In this document: piece after piece, positions 22,872-58,295 of the stretch
Layout of the letters: every line of letters starts with the position of its first letter
Numbering within the stretch: position 1 is the first letter of the stretch
Source of the DNA: a bacterium
GTDB taxonomy: Bacteria; Armatimonadota; Fimbriimonadia; Fimbriimonadales; Fimbriimonadaceae
Reading direction: 5' to 3'
Assembly (NCBI GenBank): GCA_027483535.1
Contig: JAIXUN010000002.1
Span: 1,860,001 to 1,924,000, forward strand
DNA: 64,000 nucleotides
Notes under the pieces: model-generated
What the model was told of the DNA's origin: nothing
Seen by the model: only the letters and a program-made list of their open reading frames with translations
Databases searched by the model: none
Program-made: the position numbers and the translations under genes

Positions 22872-22874
22872 AGA

Positions 22875-25586
22875 TTAGTCGCTCACAACAACGTTTACCA
22901 ATTTTCCTTGGACAACGATGACCTTGCGGATAGTCTTCCCGTCAGTGAAAGTCTTGACACGATCGCTGGCAAGGGCAAACTCCTGGAGCTGAGCATCGCT
23001 CGAACCCGCCGCCACTTCCAAGGTGTCGCGGAGCTTTCCGTTCACCTGAACGGCAACGGTCACCGAATCGGACTTCGCAAGTTCGGCGTCAAACTTCGGC
23101 CATTCGGCAAGGTAGGTCCCCCCTTCCTTTCCGAGGGATGTCCAAAGCTCATCCGCGCTGTGCGGTGCACCCGGCGAAAGGAGAAGCACCAGCGTTTCCG
23201 CCGCTTCCGAGAGGCATGCCTTTCGCTCCGGCGACATCGTCGCCAGATCAGCGCCTTTCAGCACATCGTAAAGCTCGTTCACGTACTTCATCAACCACGA
23301 AACGTAGGTGTTGAAGCTGAACCGCTCGATGTCGTCGGTGCAGTTCTTGATGGTCTGGTGAGTGACCCTTCTGACCCTCTTCACGAAATCGTCTGCTTCG
23401 CTGAATGCCAGCGCGCCCGACCAGTTCGGGTTGTAGTGGGGCTGAAGGTCGCTGATCCATTTGAAGATTCGCGAAAGGAACCGGACCTGACCTTGCATGC
23501 CCTCGTTTTGCCACTGAACATCGGCGTTGAACGGGGCGACAAAGAGCAGATACATTCGCAGGGCGTCTGCGCCGCAAAGCTCAACCGCTTCATCTGGGGT
23601 CACGACGTTGCCCTTCGATTTGCTCATGCGCACCCACTTCCAGGTGAGTTCGCTCTCCGGGAGGGTCTTTGCTTCTTCAAACGAGCAAAGAATTCCGTCT
23701 TCTCCCACGCCGAGCCTTTCGCCTTCTCGGGGCTTTCGGTACGGCGTATTCGCCAAGACTTGACCCTGGTTGAGCAACCGCTTGAACGGCTCTTTCACGG
23801 GAACGAGCCCTTCATCAAACAGCACCTTCGTCCAGAATCGAGCGTAGAGCAAGTGCATAACGGCATGCTCGGCACCGCCCACATAGCAGTCGACCGGCAT
23901 CCAATACTTCACCGCATCCGGACTCCAACCCTGATCTGGGTTGTGAGGATCGCAGAAGCGAAGGAAATACCAAGACGAGCAGGCGAAGCCGCCCATCGTG
24001 TCGGTTTCGCGTCGACCAAGGCGACCGTCGCGATCGGTCACGTTCACAAAGCTATCGATTCGTGCGAGAGGACTGGAGCCATCGTCCGAGGGCTCGTAGT
24101 TCTCTACCCACGGCAGCTCTACGGGCAACTCCGACTCGGGCACGAGCTGTTCTTCCCCATCGGCGCTGTGGATCACCGGGATCGGGCAGCCCCAATACCG
24201 CTGCCGAGAGATCAGCCAGTCGCGCAGCTTGTACTGAATCTTCCTTTCGCCGATTCCAAGAGCTTCCACCCACTCACCCAGAGCTTGCTGGGCTTGGGAA
24301 ACGGGTTGTCCGGAATACTCGCCACTGTTCACGAGAACTGAATCTTTGGATTCGAAAACGGTCGTGAACCGCTTCACATCGGCCAGGTACTCCTCCAGAG
24401 TCGCGCCCTGCTCCTTGAGATATTCAGGAGTCGGTTGAATGACGGGGATGACGTCCAATCCGAACTTAACGGCGAAGTCGAAGTCTCGTTGGTCATGACC
24501 GGGGACGGCCATGATCGCACCCGTTCCGTACGTCGCGAGAACGTAGTCGGCGATCCAAATCGGTACCTTCCCACCCGTTGCAGGGTTGATCGCATAGGCT
24601 CCGGTGAAGACTCCCGACTTCTCGCGAGTTGTCGCAGTTCGATCCGCATCGGAGAGCGCTTTTGCCTCGTCCTGATACGCCTTGATCCGTGCTCGATCTT
24701 CTTCGTTCACCGGGAGAAGGTCGACGAGGGCGTGCTCAGGAGCCAACACGCAGAAGGTCATGCCAAAGATCGTGTCAATTCGCGTGGTGAATACATCGAA
24801 GTAGCGCGCCTTGTCTCGTACGTCTGAATCCTCGGAGTCCAGGTCGAGTCGCTTCCCTTCGCGCTCGCCCGTTCCGGCAACTCGCATGGAGAACTGCACA
24901 CCCTCGCTGCGACCGATCCAGTTGCGCTGCATCGCTTTGATGCCTTCCGGCCAATCGAGAGTATCTAGATCATCGAGTAGTCGCTGAGCGTAATCGGTGA
25001 TCTTGAAGAACCACTGCGCGATCCACTTCTTCTCGACTACGGCACCGGAACGCTCGGCTCGACCACCGATCACTTCTTCATCGGCAAGAACGGTTTTGTC
25101 GATCGGATCCCAGTTGACGGCGGCGAGCTTTCGATACGCCAGCCCGCGCTTATAGAGGATGGAGAAAATCCACTGCGTCCACTTGTAGTAGTCGGCATCG
25201 CTGGACTTGAACGATCGGGACCAGTCGTACGAGATGCCGACCATGTCGATCTGTCGACGGTAGTTGTCGGCATAGCGATCGATCATCGGCGCCGGGTGGC
25301 TTTTGCGCTTGATCGCCTCGTTCTCGGCTGGAAGACCAAAAGCGTCGAATCCCATCGGGTGCAGAACGTTGTAGCCCTGCATAAACTTCATGCGGCACAG
25401 AACGTCGGTCGGGATGTAGTTGCGGCAGTGGCCAACGCTCAGGCCCGCTCCGGACGGATACGGGAAGAAATCCATCCCGTAGAACTTGGGTCGGTCGGCA
25501 TCGACGCGGGTTTTGAAGAGGTCGGTTTCCGTCCACTTCTGGCGCCATTTGGACTCAAATTCTTTCGGTTCGTAGCGGTCGAGCAT
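22875..25586 (-). CDS. leuS: Leucyl-tRNA synthetase
   Basis: Charges tRNA-Leu. About 903 residues from ATG 25586 (MLDRYEPKEFESKWRQ); the frame extends 13 codons further but the extension looks unconserved. Class I features: PYPSGAGLSVGHCRNY, where the HIGH motif reads SVGH rather than the usual H(M/V)GH, GFDAFGLPAENEA, the editing domain in the middle with TTRIDTIFGMTF, and RMSKSKGNVV. The C terminus has the usual anticodon-binding helices. No T-box is visible upstream. Confidence 0.95.
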   Translation of the reverse strand: MLDRYEPKEFESKWRQKWTETDLFKTRVDADRPKFYGMDFFPYPSGAGLSVGHCRNYIPTDVLCRMKFMQGYNVLHPMGFDAFGLPAENEAIKRKSHPAPMIDRYADNYRRQIDMVGISYDWSRSFKSSDADYYKWTQWIFSILYKRGLAYRKLAAVNWDPIDKTVLADEEVIGGRAERSGAVVEKKWIAQWFFKITDYAQRLLDDLDTLDWPEGIKAMQRNWIGRSEGVQFSMRVAGTGEREGKRLDLDSEDSDVRDKARYFDVFTTRIDTIFGMTFCVLAPEHALVDLLPVNEEDRARIKAYQDEAKALSDADRTATTREKSGVFTGAYAINPATGGKVPIWIADYVLATYGTGAIMAVPGHDQRDFDFAVKFGLDVIPVIQPTPEYLKEQGATLEEYLADVKRFTTVFESKDSVLVNSGEYSGQPVSQAQQALGEWVEALGIGERKIQYKLRDWLISRQRYWGCPIPVIHSADGEEQLVPESELPVELPWVENYEPSDDGSSPLARIDSFVNVTDRDGRLGRRETDTMGGFACSSWYFLRFCDPHNPDQGWSPDAVKYWMPVDCYVGGAEHAVMHLLYARFWTKVLFDEGLVPVKEPFKRLLNQGQVLANTPYRKPREGERLGVGEDGILCSFEEAKTLPESELTWKWVRMSKSKGNVVTPDEAVELCGADALRMYLLFVAPFNADVQWQNEGMQGQVRFLSRIFKWISDLQPHYNPNWSGALAFSEADDFVKRVRRVTHQTIKNCTDDIERFSFNTYVSWLMKYVNELYDVLKGADLATMSPERKACLSEAAETLVLLLSPGAPHSADELWTSLGKEGGTYLAEWPKFDAELAKSDSVTVAVQVNGKLRDTLEVAAGSSDAQLQEFALASDRVKTFTDGKTIRKVIVVQGKLVNVVVSD

Positions 25587-31472: not shown

Positions 31473-31495
31473 CTCGTCTGCGTCCTTAAGAGACC

Positions 31496-33385
<1,890 letters not shown>

Positions 33386-40183: not shown

Positions 40184-40801
40184 CTAACTCAGTGGACGAG
40201 AAACTTCAAAAACTTCGGTCTCGTCCACGTACTCTGCCCCGCCAAGCCTGCCGATGAGGCGAATAGGATCCGTCTTGAACGCCTCTACGGTTTGAGAGAT
40301 GTGAATTCGGAGGACTTCCCCAACCACGTATCGGGCCGAACCTACTCCTTCTCCGTGGTGGACGACTTCGTGAAGTTTGCATTCGAGAGACGCGAGACTC
40401 TCGGCGACTCGCTGGGGGGTGACAACATCCGAGGGAAGCGGCGTCAGTCCAGAGAGTTCCCACTCATCGGTTTCGAACGGTACTGATCGACCCGCCTGGT
40501 TCATCGGATCGATCATGTCTCGATGAACGGTGTTCACTACAAACTCGCCCGTCTCTCGAATGTTCCGAAGTGAGTCCTTCTCGCCCCGACTCCCAAGCAC
40601 GGGCGAGAAAACGATGGAGGGGGGATTTGTGCCACCGAGCATGAAGAAACTGAACGGAGCCAGGTTACGAAGACCGTTCGCGCTTATCGACGAGACGAGC
40701 GCAATGGGTCGCGGATGGACGATGGACGTGAGCAGTTCGTACAGAGCCATCGGGTCTAAATCCCCAGGGGCTAAACAGATCTTCGAGTCGCTCGCGTTCA
40801 T
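40184..40801 (-). CDS. Flavin reductase-like FMN-binding protein
   Basis: A 205-residue protein of the flavin reductase (split beta-barrel) family: YELLTSIVHPRPIALVSSIS (20-39), NLAPFSFFMLGGTNPPSIVF (46-65), DSLRNIRETGEFVVNTVHRD, and the dimer region SLASLECKLHEVVHHGEGVG. It binds FMN and probably uses NAD(P)H; the partner oxygenase is unknown. No signal peptide is seen. It is convergent with the secreted paralogue pair. Confidence 0.88.
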   Translation of the reverse strand: MNASDSKICLAPGDLDPMALYELLTSIVHPRPIALVSSISANGLRNLAPFSFFMLGGTNPPSIVFSPVLGSRGEKDSLRNIRETGEFVVNTVHRDMIDPMNQAGRSVPFETDEWELSGLTPLPSDVVTPQRVAESLASLECKLHEVVHHGEGVGSARYVVGEVLRIHISQTVEAFKTDPIRLIGRLGGAEYVDETEVFEVSRPLS

Positions 40802-40935
40802 GATTCCCTCACTCTACGACTCTTCTGTGGATTTGAATCGAGGCAATTCACCTCTTTTCCAATATTTTTAACAACAATCCGTAGATTAATCGAAACTGTT
40901 ATCGAGCATAATCATCTCAATAACGGAGACTCGTC

Positions 40936-41061
40936 ATGAACCACCACTTTTTTAATACCAATCGAGGAGATCGCGCCTATCAGGCCGCGATGCCCGATTG
41001 CGTGGTGAGTTTGGACGGTACTTCCCCTCGGGGCATATCCGCAAACAGTCGAGCCAACTAA
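40936..41061 (+). CDS. Possible 41-residue leader peptide before rtcB
   Basis: ATG 40936 has GGAG seven bases upstream, a better SD than rtcB itself. The peptide begins MNHHFFNTNRGDRAYQAAMP and ends at TAA 41059-41061. It has no homologue I know. The stop lies within the loop of the inner stem of the structured segment, so translation would unfold the 5' arms of both stems. It could be a leader peptide for attenuation, or merely a chance frame. Confidence 0.3.
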   Translation: MNHHFFNTNRGDRAYQAAMPDCVVSLDGTSPRGISANSRAN

Positions 41062-41095
41062 GCACGAGCTCTTCCTCGACTCCCCCGAACTCACC
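41004..41095 (+). ncRNA. Structured element upstream of rtcB (three-way-junction fold)
   Basis: An 11-bp closing stem (41004-41014 with 41085-41095, one G-T pair) encloses two internal hairpins: CCC/GGG around a CTCG loop (41024-41033), flanked by CGG/CCG (41016-41018 with 41039-41041), and a perfect 7-bp stem (41047-41053 with 41075-41081) with a 21-base loop. It is not a tRNA: no TTCGA T-loop and no D-loop GG. It could be a cis-regulatory RNA, a Y-RNA-like molecule or a large operator. Confidence 0.45.
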
Positions 41096-41140
41096 TAACT
41101 CGCACAAGTAAGTGTCTCAGCACGTGTTCTTGCGCATCTA

Positions 41141-41150
41141 GACCTAGGTC
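41141..41150. promoter_or_regulatory. Perfect 10-bp palindrome GACCTAGGTC
   Basis: Lies 95 bases before the rtcB start, just after another palindrome CACGTG (41121-41126). It could be an operator for a dimeric regulator. Confidence 0.3.
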
Positions 41151-41245
41151 CAGTTGCTCGATACCGCCTGCTCTCTCCTCTCTTCGAACTTGTTTCGCAT
41201 TTGCGACCACGTTCCCATGACCATGAACACACAGGACAAACCACC

Positions 41246-42427
41246 ATGAAAATCATTGATGAAGTACCGATCTGGGGCGACCCGATCTTTCCGGAAGCGC
41301 TCGCGCAGATTCAAAATGCGCGATTCACAGGGGCAACCCACATGGCACTCATGGCCGACCACCACGTTGGCTACGGCGTGCCGATTGGCGGAGTTGTGGC
41401 GTACGAAGATCGGATCTCTCCGAGCGGTGTCGGTTACGACATTGCTTGCGGAAACAAGGCTGTAAAGCTGGATGTCGACGCAAGAAAGGTCCGCTCGCAA
41501 ATCCACAAAATCATGGATGAGGTCGTTAAAAAGATCTCATTCGGCGTGGGAAGGAAGAACCAAGATGAAATGGTCGACAACTCATTGTTCGACTCAGATC
41601 TGTGGCTACTTCCGCACATGAAAAGACTTAAGGAGAAGGCACAAGAGCAACTAGGCACCGTTGGTAGTGGAAACCACTACGTAGACATTTTTGTCGACGA
41701 ATCGGAGAACATTTGGGTTGGAGTTCACTTCGGCTCACGTGGGCTCGGGCACGGGATTGCGACCCACTACATGGACATTGCGAAGGCAAAGGGCCATGAG
41801 CACGGGCATATCACGTGGTTGCATCAAGATTCGGAAGAGGGTGCGGAGTACATCGAGTGCATGAACCTGGCGGGGCAATATGCTTACGCAGGTCGAGACT
41901 GGGTGTGCCAACGAGTGGCTAAGATTCTTGGAGGAAAGATTGTGGAAGAGGTTCACAACCACCACAACTTCGCTTGGAAGGAGAACCACTTTGGTCGGGA
42001 TATGTGGGTGGTCCGAAAGGGCGCAACACCGGCTTTTCCGGGTCAAAAGGGGTTTGTAGGCGGCTCGATGGGTGAAGAATCGGTGATTCTGGAAGGGGTC
42101 GAGGACGAAGATGGAAAGCACTCGCTTTACTCAACCGTTCACGGCGCGGGTCGGGTCATGTCGAGGACTCAAGCAACCGGGCGAGACCGACGAGGGAAAT
42201 CGAAGCCGGGCGTTATCGGAGCGATCCATCCGGATGCAATGAAGCGCTGGCTGCAAGATGCCGGAGTCGTTTTGCGCGGGGGAGACGTCGACGAGGCGCC
42301 TCAGGCGTACAAGCGACTGAACCACGTGCTCAACCACCACGCCAACAGCATCAAAATCCTACATCGACTCAAGCCACTTGGCGTAGCGATGGCAGGTGCC
42401 GGGGAATACGACCCGTACAAAGATTGA
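41246..42427 (+). CDS. rtcB: RNA-splicing ligase RtcB
   Basis: GTP- and Mn-dependent ligase joining RNA 2',3'-cyclic phosphate (or 3'-phosphate) to 5'-OH ends, used in RNA repair. 393 residues from ATG 41246 (AGGA 10 bases upstream; the 41201 extension is unsupported). Signatures: MADHHVGYGVPIGGV (36-50), DIACGNKA (65-72, metal Cys68), GSGNH (140-144), HFGSRGLGH (161-169), NHHN (238-241) and VHGAGRVMSR with the guanylylated His299. No archease or rtcA is adjacent. Confidence 0.95.
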   Translation: MKIIDEVPIWGDPIFPEALAQIQNARFTGATHMALMADHHVGYGVPIGGVVAYEDRISPSGVGYDIACGNKAVKLDVDARKVRSQIHKIMDEVVKKISFGVGRKNQDEMVDNSLFDSDLWLLPHMKRLKEKAQEQLGTVGSGNHYVDIFVDESENIWVGVHFGSRGLGHGIATHYMDIAKAKGHEHGHITWLHQDSEEGAEYIECMNLAGQYAYAGRDWVCQRVAKILGGKIVEEVHNHHNFAWKENHFGRDMWVVRKGATPAFPGQKGFVGGSMGEESVILEGVEDEDGKHSLYSTVHGAGRVMSRTQATGRDRRGKSKPGVIGAIHPDAMKRWLQDAGVVLRGGDVDEAPQAYKRLNHVLNHHANSIKILHRLKPLGVAMAGAGEYDPYKD

Positions 42428-42429
42428 AA

Positions 42430-42472
42430 CCCACACAACCTTCGAGGAATCCTCGAGGGTTGTGTGAGTTTT
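42430..42472 (+). terminator. Terminator after rtcB
   Basis: A long stem of up to 19 bp (42430-42448 with 42450-42468; one mismatch and one wobble; the innermost pairs open as the loop) followed by TTTTAA. It lies between convergent rtcB and trpS. Confidence 0.85.
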
Positions 42473-42493
42473 AACGGGACGACTTTTGAGGAG

Positions 42494-56313: not shown

Positions 56314-57093
56314 TTAGCCCTTTCGTTTGATCGTCAGAATGTTTTTGAGAGTTCGCTCGGTTGGCAAGCTGCCCGGCTTTTTGAGATCAAAAACCTTCGC
56401 CTTGGAAACGGCGGTGACGGTAAAGACCTGGAAAACTCCTACCTTCCGGGAGAACTCGCCCGAGCCTTCCCCGCTCAGGACGGTCTCGACCTTCTTTGAT
56501 GCTTCTTTCTCGGACGGGACCGGATTTCCAAAACCATTCTCGAAGCTATCGAACTCTTGATTCAAGGTGAACGAAATCTTCACGGTTTCATCGGTCACGG
56601 CTTCGACTTTGGCGACATACCGCACGGGCGATCCTCCAAAAGATTTATCGAATTTGTAGGTCTTCCCCACCTCCGCACCGTCTGGCGGGAGCTGAATGGG
56701 AAGGTAGCTCACTTCCGGAAAGCGCTGACTGTCGAGACCAGGAAGTCGAACGGGCATTGCCACTTTCGGGGCGTCGTTCCGGACCATCTCGCCAGAGGCC
56801 TTAAACTCGGCGATCGCTTTCGGAAAGAACGATTGAACGTTGTCTTTGGTGAACGGGAGTTCGTTGCCGTTCATTTCCACACCGAACTCTTCGATCTCGC
56901 TTTCAACGGCGAAGTTGCCAGACTCCTTCGGCTCAACTCCAGAGGCGATAGCGACGATCTTAACCCGTGCCTCGCCTTCCCTGCCCCCAAACAACGGGAG
57001 GAACCCTTTGAACTGGACATCGACATCGAACCGATGAACGGTGCTAGGAGTGAAGCCAAAAACTATCGCGGCAGCAAGAGAGGCGAATGTCAT
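56314..57093 (-). CDS. Secreted protein, unrecognised
   Basis: A 259-residue exported protein. A short signal peptide (MTFASLAAAIVFGFTPS) precedes a beta-rich body (VHRFDVDVQFKGFLPLFGGR, AKVEAVTDETVKISFTLNQE, FSRKVGVFQVFTVTAVSKAK). It has no family I recognise. The ATG overlaps the stop of the upstream AI-2E gene (ATGA), so the two are translationally coupled. Confidence 0.65.
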   Translation of the reverse strand: MTFASLAAAIVFGFTPSTVHRFDVDVQFKGFLPLFGGREGEARVKIVAIASGVEPKESGNFAVESEIEEFGVEMNGNELPFTKDNVQSFFPKAIAEFKASGEMVRNDAPKVAMPVRLPGLDSQRFPEVSYLPIQLPPDGAEVGKTYKFDKSFGGSPVRYVAKVEAVTDETVKISFTLNQEFDSFENGFGNPVPSEKEASKKVETVLSGEGSGEFSRKVGVFQVFTVTAVSKAKVFDLKKPGSLPTERTLKNILTIKRKG

Positions 57094-58295
57094 GCGAGTT
57101 CTCGACGGTGTCGACTTGGGATGACTGGCAACGAGAAAACCTCGTCCGGTCGGTTTGTATACGTAAGTACCCTGTCCAAAACAACCTTGATCGCGCCTGC
57201 CATCGGGAAGGCGAGGATCATGCCCGGCAACCCAAACAGGGCACCGAAGCTGAAGATCACGAACATTGAAACTAACGGATCGAGCCCTACCGCGGTTCCG
57301 ACAATGCGAGGATAAAGCAGCATGTCGAACACTAGGTGACAGAGCACGAAAACGACCGCCATGGCGATGGCTGCCGCAACGGGCGACGGAAGGACCATGA
57401 AGAGGAAGGTGCTTTTGCCGCTGAAAATGGTCACCGCGATCAAAACGGTGGCACTTATAATCGAGTTGAGATACGGCACCAGATACACCGTCCCGGCCAG
57501 TAGTCCAAGGACCAATCCGTACGGAGCGCCAATGAGGGTCAACAGGATCATCATTGTCACCGTGTATGCAGAAACGGCGATGCTCACACCGCGAAGGTAG
57601 TCGCTAAAGACGTCGCCAAGCTTATCGGTGAGGTCGGTCGCCCCCTGTCGTAGCGCGGGCGGGATGAGATGCATCAACCGCGTCCGAATCTCTTCGGTCC
57701 TTGGAAGAGACATGAGAACGATTATCGGCACGAAAGCCAACGTAAACAGTTGTGAGACCAGTCCCGAAGCGATCCCTACGAAGCTGTTTACGAACGTTTG
57801 GAACGACTTCCCGAACTGCCCTCGCTGGGGTTCGATGTACTGGGAATACAGACCGCGCTTGGTGGTCGGTAGGTTCAGGCGTTCAAGAAGGTCTTTTTGG
57901 TCGGTAAGAAGCCGCTCAACCCAGTCCTTCTTCGCGGGCATCGCCAATCGGTGGTCCACACTGGCCCGAACAAAGAAGTTGGACTTTGGGTCGGGCTTCG
58001 TCACGCCTTCGACAACTTCCCGCGCCTTAGACTGAAACCCGGCAACCTGTTCCGTCGCGTACGGCGTGATAAGAATCAGCGCCACGAGGATCGAACCAAA
58101 GAAGGCGAAGATCGGAATCCCCGAAGCAAATCCGTTGGACCAGCCCTTTTTCAGCAATTTGCGGCGGACGGGCGCCAAGATCGCCGTGATCAGGAAAGCG
58201 ACAATGAAAGGCAAAAGAATGCCTCTCACCGCGTATAGAAACGCGAAGAGCACCGCTACGATAACGAGCCAGAGGGCAATCCTTCGTCCAAGCAT
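57090..58295 (-). CDS. AI-2E family transporter (PerM-like)
   Basis: A 401-residue integral membrane protein. The family pattern is clear: paired N-terminal helices (LWLVIVAVLFAFLYAVRGIL, LPFIVAFLITAILAPVRRKL), a large extracytoplasmic domain (about 90-190), then LTLIGAPYGLVLGLLAGTVY and LDPLVSMFVIFSFGALFGLP with AFPMAGAIKVVLDR at the end. The substrate is unknown; the AI-2 export name comes from E. coli TqsA and need not apply. Coupled to the downstream secreted protein. Confidence 0.92.
   Translation of the reverse strand: MLGRRIALWLVIVAVLFAFLYAVRGILLPFIVAFLITAILAPVRRKLLKKGWSNGFASGIPIFAFFGSILVALILITPYATEQVAGFQSKAREVVEGVTKPDPKSNFFVRASVDHRLAMPAKKDWVERLLTDQKDLLERLNLPTTKRGLYSQYIEPQRGQFGKSFQTFVNSFVGIASGLVSQLFTLAFVPIIVLMSLPRTEEIRTRLMHLIPPALRQGATDLTDKLGDVFSDYLRGVSIAVSAYTVTMMILLTLIGAPYGLVLGLLAGTVYLVPYLNSIISATVLIAVTIFSGKSTFLFMVLPSPVAAAIAMAVVFVLCHLVFDMLLYPRIVGTAVGLDPLVSMFVIFSFGALFGLPGMILAFPMAGAIKVVLDRVLTYTNRPDEVFSLPVIPSRHRRELA

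What the first reader, a model, noticed from the sequence alone, without database searches (positions are those of the whole stretch)
41004..41095. Three-way-junction RNA-like fold just before rtcB
An 11-bp closing stem, a perfect 7-bp inner stem and a small GC hairpin fit inside 92 bases of otherwise non-coding DNA, about 150 bases before rtcB. rtcB-linked Y-RNA-like molecules are known in other bacteria (with Rsr/Ro60), and RtcB is an RNA ligase, so this could be a partner RNA, a cis-regulatory element or a substrate. The T-loop and D-loop of tRNA and YrlA are not visible, so it would be a different type.
Basis: partly seen in the sequence, partly recalled or inferred. Interest (0 to 1): 0.7.

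Follow-up and report, generated by a model that had tools for sequence, protein, structure and literature searches.

The report
Structured rtcB leader with short ORF
A stable RNA fold lies in front of an RNA-repair ligase gene; it is unique to this genome and overlaps a possible short leader ORF, so it is most likely part of the gene's own 5' leader and not a separate partner RNA, while related bacteria show a clearer on/off switch of that kind before the same gene.

Summary
The fold is real. Bases 41004-41095 fold as a three-way junction (-35.1 kcal/mol, z -3.9), about the best 2-3% of windows in this 64 kb, so notable but not extreme. It is single-copy. No sequence or structural relative was found in 19 other genomes of the genus or at 76 other rtcB-locus stretches, so covariation cannot be tested. 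It is not cleanly non-coding: it overlaps a 41-codon ORF (40936-41061) with a Shine-Dalgarno site and a -10-like box. That ORF has no homolog and no gene-like codon usage. A Y-RNA role is unsupported: no Ro60 (TROVE) gene, no Rfam match, no flanking promoter or terminator. The best reading is an element of rtcB's 5' leader. Its 5' arm can pair with its 3' arm or, more weakly, with rtcB's start codon, so a ribosome on the short ORF could tune rtcB. Support by analogy: in the class, 11 rtcB loci in 7 genera show promoter, short ORF, intrinsic terminator, then rtcB; two more in this genus have ORF-bearing structured leaders without a terminator. RtcR, the known damaged-tRNA sensor, was found in none of 113 genomes. 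The switch in this window is a hypothesis (about 0.4); a functionless stable leader is the main rival.

The parts
40907..40912 (+). -10-like box CATAAT; likely start of the rtcB leader transcript near 40919
   Evidence: Read directly; no good -35, and not found by the consensus scan, so weak. The same CATAAT box precedes the leader ORF in L019, L063 and L170.
40925..40928 (+). Shine-Dalgarno GGAG of the short leader ORF, 7 bases before its ATG
   Evidence: Sequence. An SD-bearing ORF of 41 codons or more in this place occurs in about 1% of shuffles.
40936..41061 (+). Short ORF, 41 codons (MNHHFFNTNRGDRAYQAAMPDCVVSLDGTSPRGISANSRAN), candidate leader peptide
   Evidence: codon usage not gene-like; no homolog in 113 genomes of the class.
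41004..41095 (+). Three-way junction RNA fold
41004..41014 (+). 5' arm of the closing stem (GGTGAGTTTGG), inside the short ORF
41085..41095 (+). 3' arm of the closing stem (CCGAACTCACC)
41024..41033 (+). GC hairpin of the first branch
41047..41081 (+). Second branch, perfect 7-bp stem 41047-41053/41075-41081
41237..41248 (+). rtcB start region (CAAACCACCATG), alternative partner of 41001-41013: 12 bp with one bulge
   Evidence: duplex -21.4 kcal/mol, 0 of 1000 shuffled leaders, but 2% of native segments; less stable than the junction by 2-5 kcal/mol.
41246..42427 (+). rtcB, RNA ligase
   Evidence: PF01139, E 9.9e-72.

Best explanation
The junction is part of the 5' leader of the rtcB mRNA, not a free-standing RNA. 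Transcription probably starts near 40919 and passes a short ORF whose second half forms much of the junction. Left alone, the leader folds into the junction, which keeps its 5' arm (41001-41014) occupied and rtcB's ribosome-binding site mostly open. Ribosomes moving through the ORF open the junction, and the freed 5' arm can then pair with rtcB's start region (41237-41248). Ribosome stalling early in the ORF, as broken or scarce tRNAs would cause, would favour the junction and hence RtcB synthesis. Shown: the fold, the overlap with an ORF, the alternative complementarity, and attenuator-like leaders at rtcB in relatives. Inferred: transcription from this start, translation of the ORF, the switch and its signal.
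For: Fold stable and dominant in the whole leader. ORF with SD overlapping the junction, about 1% in shuffles. Complementarity of the 5' arm to the rtcB start has the lowest z (-4.6) of about 55 class rtcB loci tested, the next being -2.9. No consensus promoter or terminator bounds a separate RNA. In the class, 17 of 62 rtcB loci have an intrinsic terminator close upstream against 6 of 109 other genes; 11 of these, in 7 genera, have -10 box, short ORF, terminator, rtcB, with ORF stop to terminator 7-32 nt and complementarity of the leader to the terminator's 5' arm (combined p 1e-4). L063 and L064, same genus, carry a similar antiterminator-like segment (TCGTCGTTYGGG) inside the ORF. L022/L023, same genus, have an ORF-bearing leader without terminator whose predicted fold pairs with the rtcB start. 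RtcR, which senses broken tRNAs for rtcB in Salmonella (PMC7790460), was not found in 113 genomes.
Against: No conservation of this leader anywhere; the nearest rtcB relatives (L003-L008) have no such leader and seem to start leaderless from a box just before the gene. The ORF has no gene-like codon usage. No terminator in this leader. The rtcB-blocking helix is weaker than the junction in almost every simulated ribosome position, and 2% of unrelated native segments match the ribosome-binding site as well. The -10 box lacks a good -35. Leader ORFs in relatives are individually unremarkable in length (combined p 0.005).
Confidence: 0.4

Rival explanations
1. A stable but functionless fold in the 5' leader or intergenic DNA; the short ORF and the complementarity to the rtcB start are coincidences.
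For: Fold only in the top 2-3% of windows; no conservation; ORF not codon-biased; 2% of native segments pair with the rtcB start as well; close relatives do without it.
Against: Several mildly unlikely features coincide in one 330-base leader, and other rtcB genes of the class have switch-like leaders.
Confidence: 0.4
2. Autoregulation or substrate: RtcB (or a nuclease) acts on the junction in its own mRNA.
For: Position just before rtcB; RtcB acts on structured RNA (general knowledge).
Against: No tRNA-like features and no conservation at any other rtcB gene, which autoregulation by a conserved enzyme would usually leave.
Confidence: 0.07
3. A separate ~90-nt non-coding RNA working with RtcB (Y-RNA-like).
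For: Compact closed fold next to rtcB.
Against: No TROVE protein in the genome, no Rfam hit, no promoter/terminator pair, single copy and no relatives.
Confidence: 0.04
4. Remnant of a mobile element (inverted-repeat unit) or of a decayed gene.
For: The outer stem is an inverted repeat.
Against: One copy in the genome; no protein or DNA relatives.
Confidence: 0.05

Closest known systems
Ribosome-mediated attenuators (trp/his leader peptides; BmrCD leader, PMC4191407; MsrD leader, PMC10314930)
   Same: Short ORF overlapping one arm of mutually exclusive helices in a 5' leader.
   Different: No intrinsic terminator in this window; the proposed output is ribosome-binding-site access; no run of one regulatory codon; target gene is an RNA ligase.
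RtcR-controlled rtcBA / rsr-yrlBA-rtcBA operon (PMC7790460)
   Same: Regulates rtcB; the proposed signal is tRNA damage.
   Different: RtcR is a transcription activator that binds tRNA fragments; no RtcR found in this class.
YrlA / bacterial Y RNAs with Rsr (Ro60)
   Same: Small structured RNA near rtcB.
   Different: No tRNA-like module, no Ro60 gene, no independent transcription signals.

Membership tests
YrlA / Y RNA | tRNA-like domain / match to the family model | tested here: not met
   Rfam: no match even at E 5; ARAGORN none
YrlA / Y RNA | Ro60/Rsr (TROVE) partner in the genome | tested here: not met
   PF05731 absent, control genome positive
Ribosome-mediated attenuator | Translatable short ORF overlapping the regulatory structure | tested here: inconclusive
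   ORF with SD present and overlapping; codon usage not gene-like; translation not testable here
Ribosome-mediated attenuator | Mutually exclusive alternative helices | tested here: inconclusive
   Alternative helix with the rtcB start exists but is 2-5 kcal/mol weaker
Ribosome-mediated attenuator | Intrinsic terminator before the gene (transcriptional type) | tested here: not met
   None in 40800-41300; met in 11 related rtcB leaders
Ribosome-mediated attenuator | Expression responds to ribosome stalling | not testable with these tools
   Needs reporter or RNA-seq data
RtcR regulon | RtcR regulator encoded in the genome | tested here: not met
   PF06956 absent from 113 genomes, E. coli control positive
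Conserved structured RNA | Covarying homologs | tested here: not met
   No homologs by blastn or covariance model

The most novel reading that the evidence does not exclude
In Fimbriimonadia, which appear to lack RtcR, rtcB is often controlled by leader-peptide attenuation: ribosomes slowed by broken tRNAs on a short, non-conserved ORF switch on the ligase that mends those tRNAs. The window carries a terminator-less, translational version built on the three-way junction.
Probability: 0.25. Interest if true: 0.65.

Novelty: new member of a known kind. Interest (0 to 1): 0.35.

Why it matters
How rtcB is switched on where RtcR is missing is an open question. A leader that reads ribosome stalling would tie tRNA damage to tRNA repair without a protein sensor. 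The class-wide pattern of promoter, short ORF, terminator, rtcB makes this directly testable with reporters. The three-way junction itself, being unique to one genome, is of limited interest alone.

Tried and rejected
Y-RNA or other known RNA: no Rfam, tRNA or TROVE evidence. Conservation of the fold: single-sequence covariance model found only itself and hits at chance level. Repeat or mobile element: single copy. Short ORF as a conserved small protein: no homologs, atypical codons. Intrinsic terminator in this leader: none. One amino acid shared by the leader peptides of relatives: arginine is the most common residue (41 of 258) but shuffling predicts 34, so no clear signal. A general excess of pairing between leader and rtcB start in the class: none; the distribution centres on zero and only the window stands out. 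First z-scan timed out. Papers joining RtcB with leader peptides or attenuation: nothing relevant in the held library.

Full report
Setting. The window lies in a Fimbriimonas-like genome (loci of the same genus retrieved by rtcB are named Fimbriimonas or Armatimonadetes). rtcB runs 41246-42427 (+) and encodes a 393-aa RtcB protein. Upstream, on the other strand, is a flavin-reductase-like gene (40184-40801); downstream, convergent, is a class I tRNA synthetase (W/Y family). The space 40802-41245 is unassigned.

The observation. The junction folds as described. It is also the minimum-energy fold within longer stretches. A scan of the 64 kb puts it among the best 2-3% of windows of the same length. 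On its own that is weak evidence of function, since the segment was picked by eye from a long sequence.

It is not isolated non-coding DNA. A 41-codon ORF (40936-41061) begins 7 bases after GGAG and ends inside the second branch of the junction. A CATAAT box lies 23 bases before the ATG. Shuffles of the leader give an SD-bearing ORF this long in about 1%. Against this, its codons do not look like those of the window's genes (lower than 98.6% of in-gene stretches) and it has no homologs. Leader peptides often lack both, so this is not decisive.

Conservation. One copy in the genome. No DNA relative in 60 related genomes above chance. A covariance model made from this one sequence finds itself at E 1.5e-27 and nothing convincing in 76 other locus stretches, mostly rtcB regions of the class (some from the same genomes), or in 19 other genomes of the genus. 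Covariation therefore cannot be tested. The six closest rtcB genes (67-71% protein identity, L003-L008) have unrelated upstream DNA and share a TATCCTTG box a few bases before the start codon, suggesting leaderless transcription.

A possible switch. The 5' arm (with three more bases, 41001-41013) is complementary to 41237-41248, which includes rtcB's start codon: 12 pairs with one bulge. No shuffled leader of 1000 reached this energy, and among about 55 class loci the window has the most extreme value. But 2% of unrelated native segments pair with this site as strongly, and the junction beats the alternative by 2-5 kcal/mol, the alternative reaching appreciable probability only with a ribosome at codons 30-32. 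This was also noticed after the fact. It is a hypothesis, not a result.

What relatives show. Reading the upstream DNA of all class rtcB loci gave a clearer pattern than the junction itself. Seventeen of 62 have an intrinsic terminator just before rtcB, against 6 of 109 other genes with room upstream. Six of the 17 belong to related species in which a longer gene ends before the terminator. The other 11, in 7 genera, have a -10 box, a short ORF of 10-33 codons ending 7-32 bases before the terminator, and in most only about 28-50 bases from terminator to rtcB, too short for a full separate promoter. Their ORF sequences are not alike. Leader complementarity to the terminator's 5' arm exceeds shuffles overall (combined p 1e-4), strongest in L063 and L153. 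L063 and L064, from the window's genus, carry a matching segment in the ORF (CGTTTGGG and CGTTCGGG) that pairs with the terminator's 5' arm (CCCGAACG and CCCGGACG) (read). L022 and L023, also in this genus, have a leaderless-looking ORF and a long structured leader with no terminator, predicted to pair with the rtcB start. Caveats: the -10 boxes were picked by eye, the ORF lengths are individually unremarkable, related loci are not independent, all six control hits lie in the window itself, and a terminator can belong to a small upstream gene.

Regulator context. In Salmonella, rtcB is switched on by RtcR after binding tRNA halves (PMC7790460). RtcR was found in none of 113 genomes of the class, with the E. 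coli control positive. TROVE/Ro60 is absent from this genome.

Judgement. The fold exists. As a partner RNA it is unsupported. As an element of rtcB's own leader it is plausible, and regulation by translation of the overlapping ORF is the best mechanism on offer at about 0.4, equal to the rival that it does nothing. The more solid lead is the attenuator-like architecture before rtcB in relatives, for which no report was found in the held library; that library lacks most subscription journals.

Noticed in passing
L015, L019, L063, L064, L074, L077, L080, L087, L153, L170, L174 (upstream of rtcB): Promoter-like box, short non-conserved ORF, intrinsic terminator, then rtcB within tens of bases: attenuator-like leaders in 7 genera of the class.
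   Followed up: partly
L022 and L023, about 280 bases upstream of rtcB: Open frame of 33 codons kept in two sister species (about 82% leader identity) but with a changing peptide; conserved CAAAAAGTCTTCC can pair with the first codons of rtcB.
   Followed up: partly
L003-L008, last 25 bases before rtcB: Shared TATCCTTG-like box a few bases before the start codon, suggesting leaderless rtcB transcripts.
   Followed up: no
L069, L070, L072, L075, L076, L148: rtcB follows, across a strong terminator and with no clear promoter of its own, a gene whose product ends in DGPPPPP(S/T)(G/S)C.
   Followed up: no
window 22874-25586 (-), 57089-58295 (-) and 31495-33376 (-): Leucyl-tRNA synthetase, AI-2E family transporter and Hsp70 genes also have terminator-like hairpins 20-120 bases before their (approximate) starts.
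   Followed up: no
window 42428-42475: Near-perfect hairpin CACACAACCTTCGAGGAATCCTCGAGGGTTGTGTG between convergent rtcB and the tRNA synthetase gene, likely a two-way terminator; among the strongest folds of the window.
   Followed up: no
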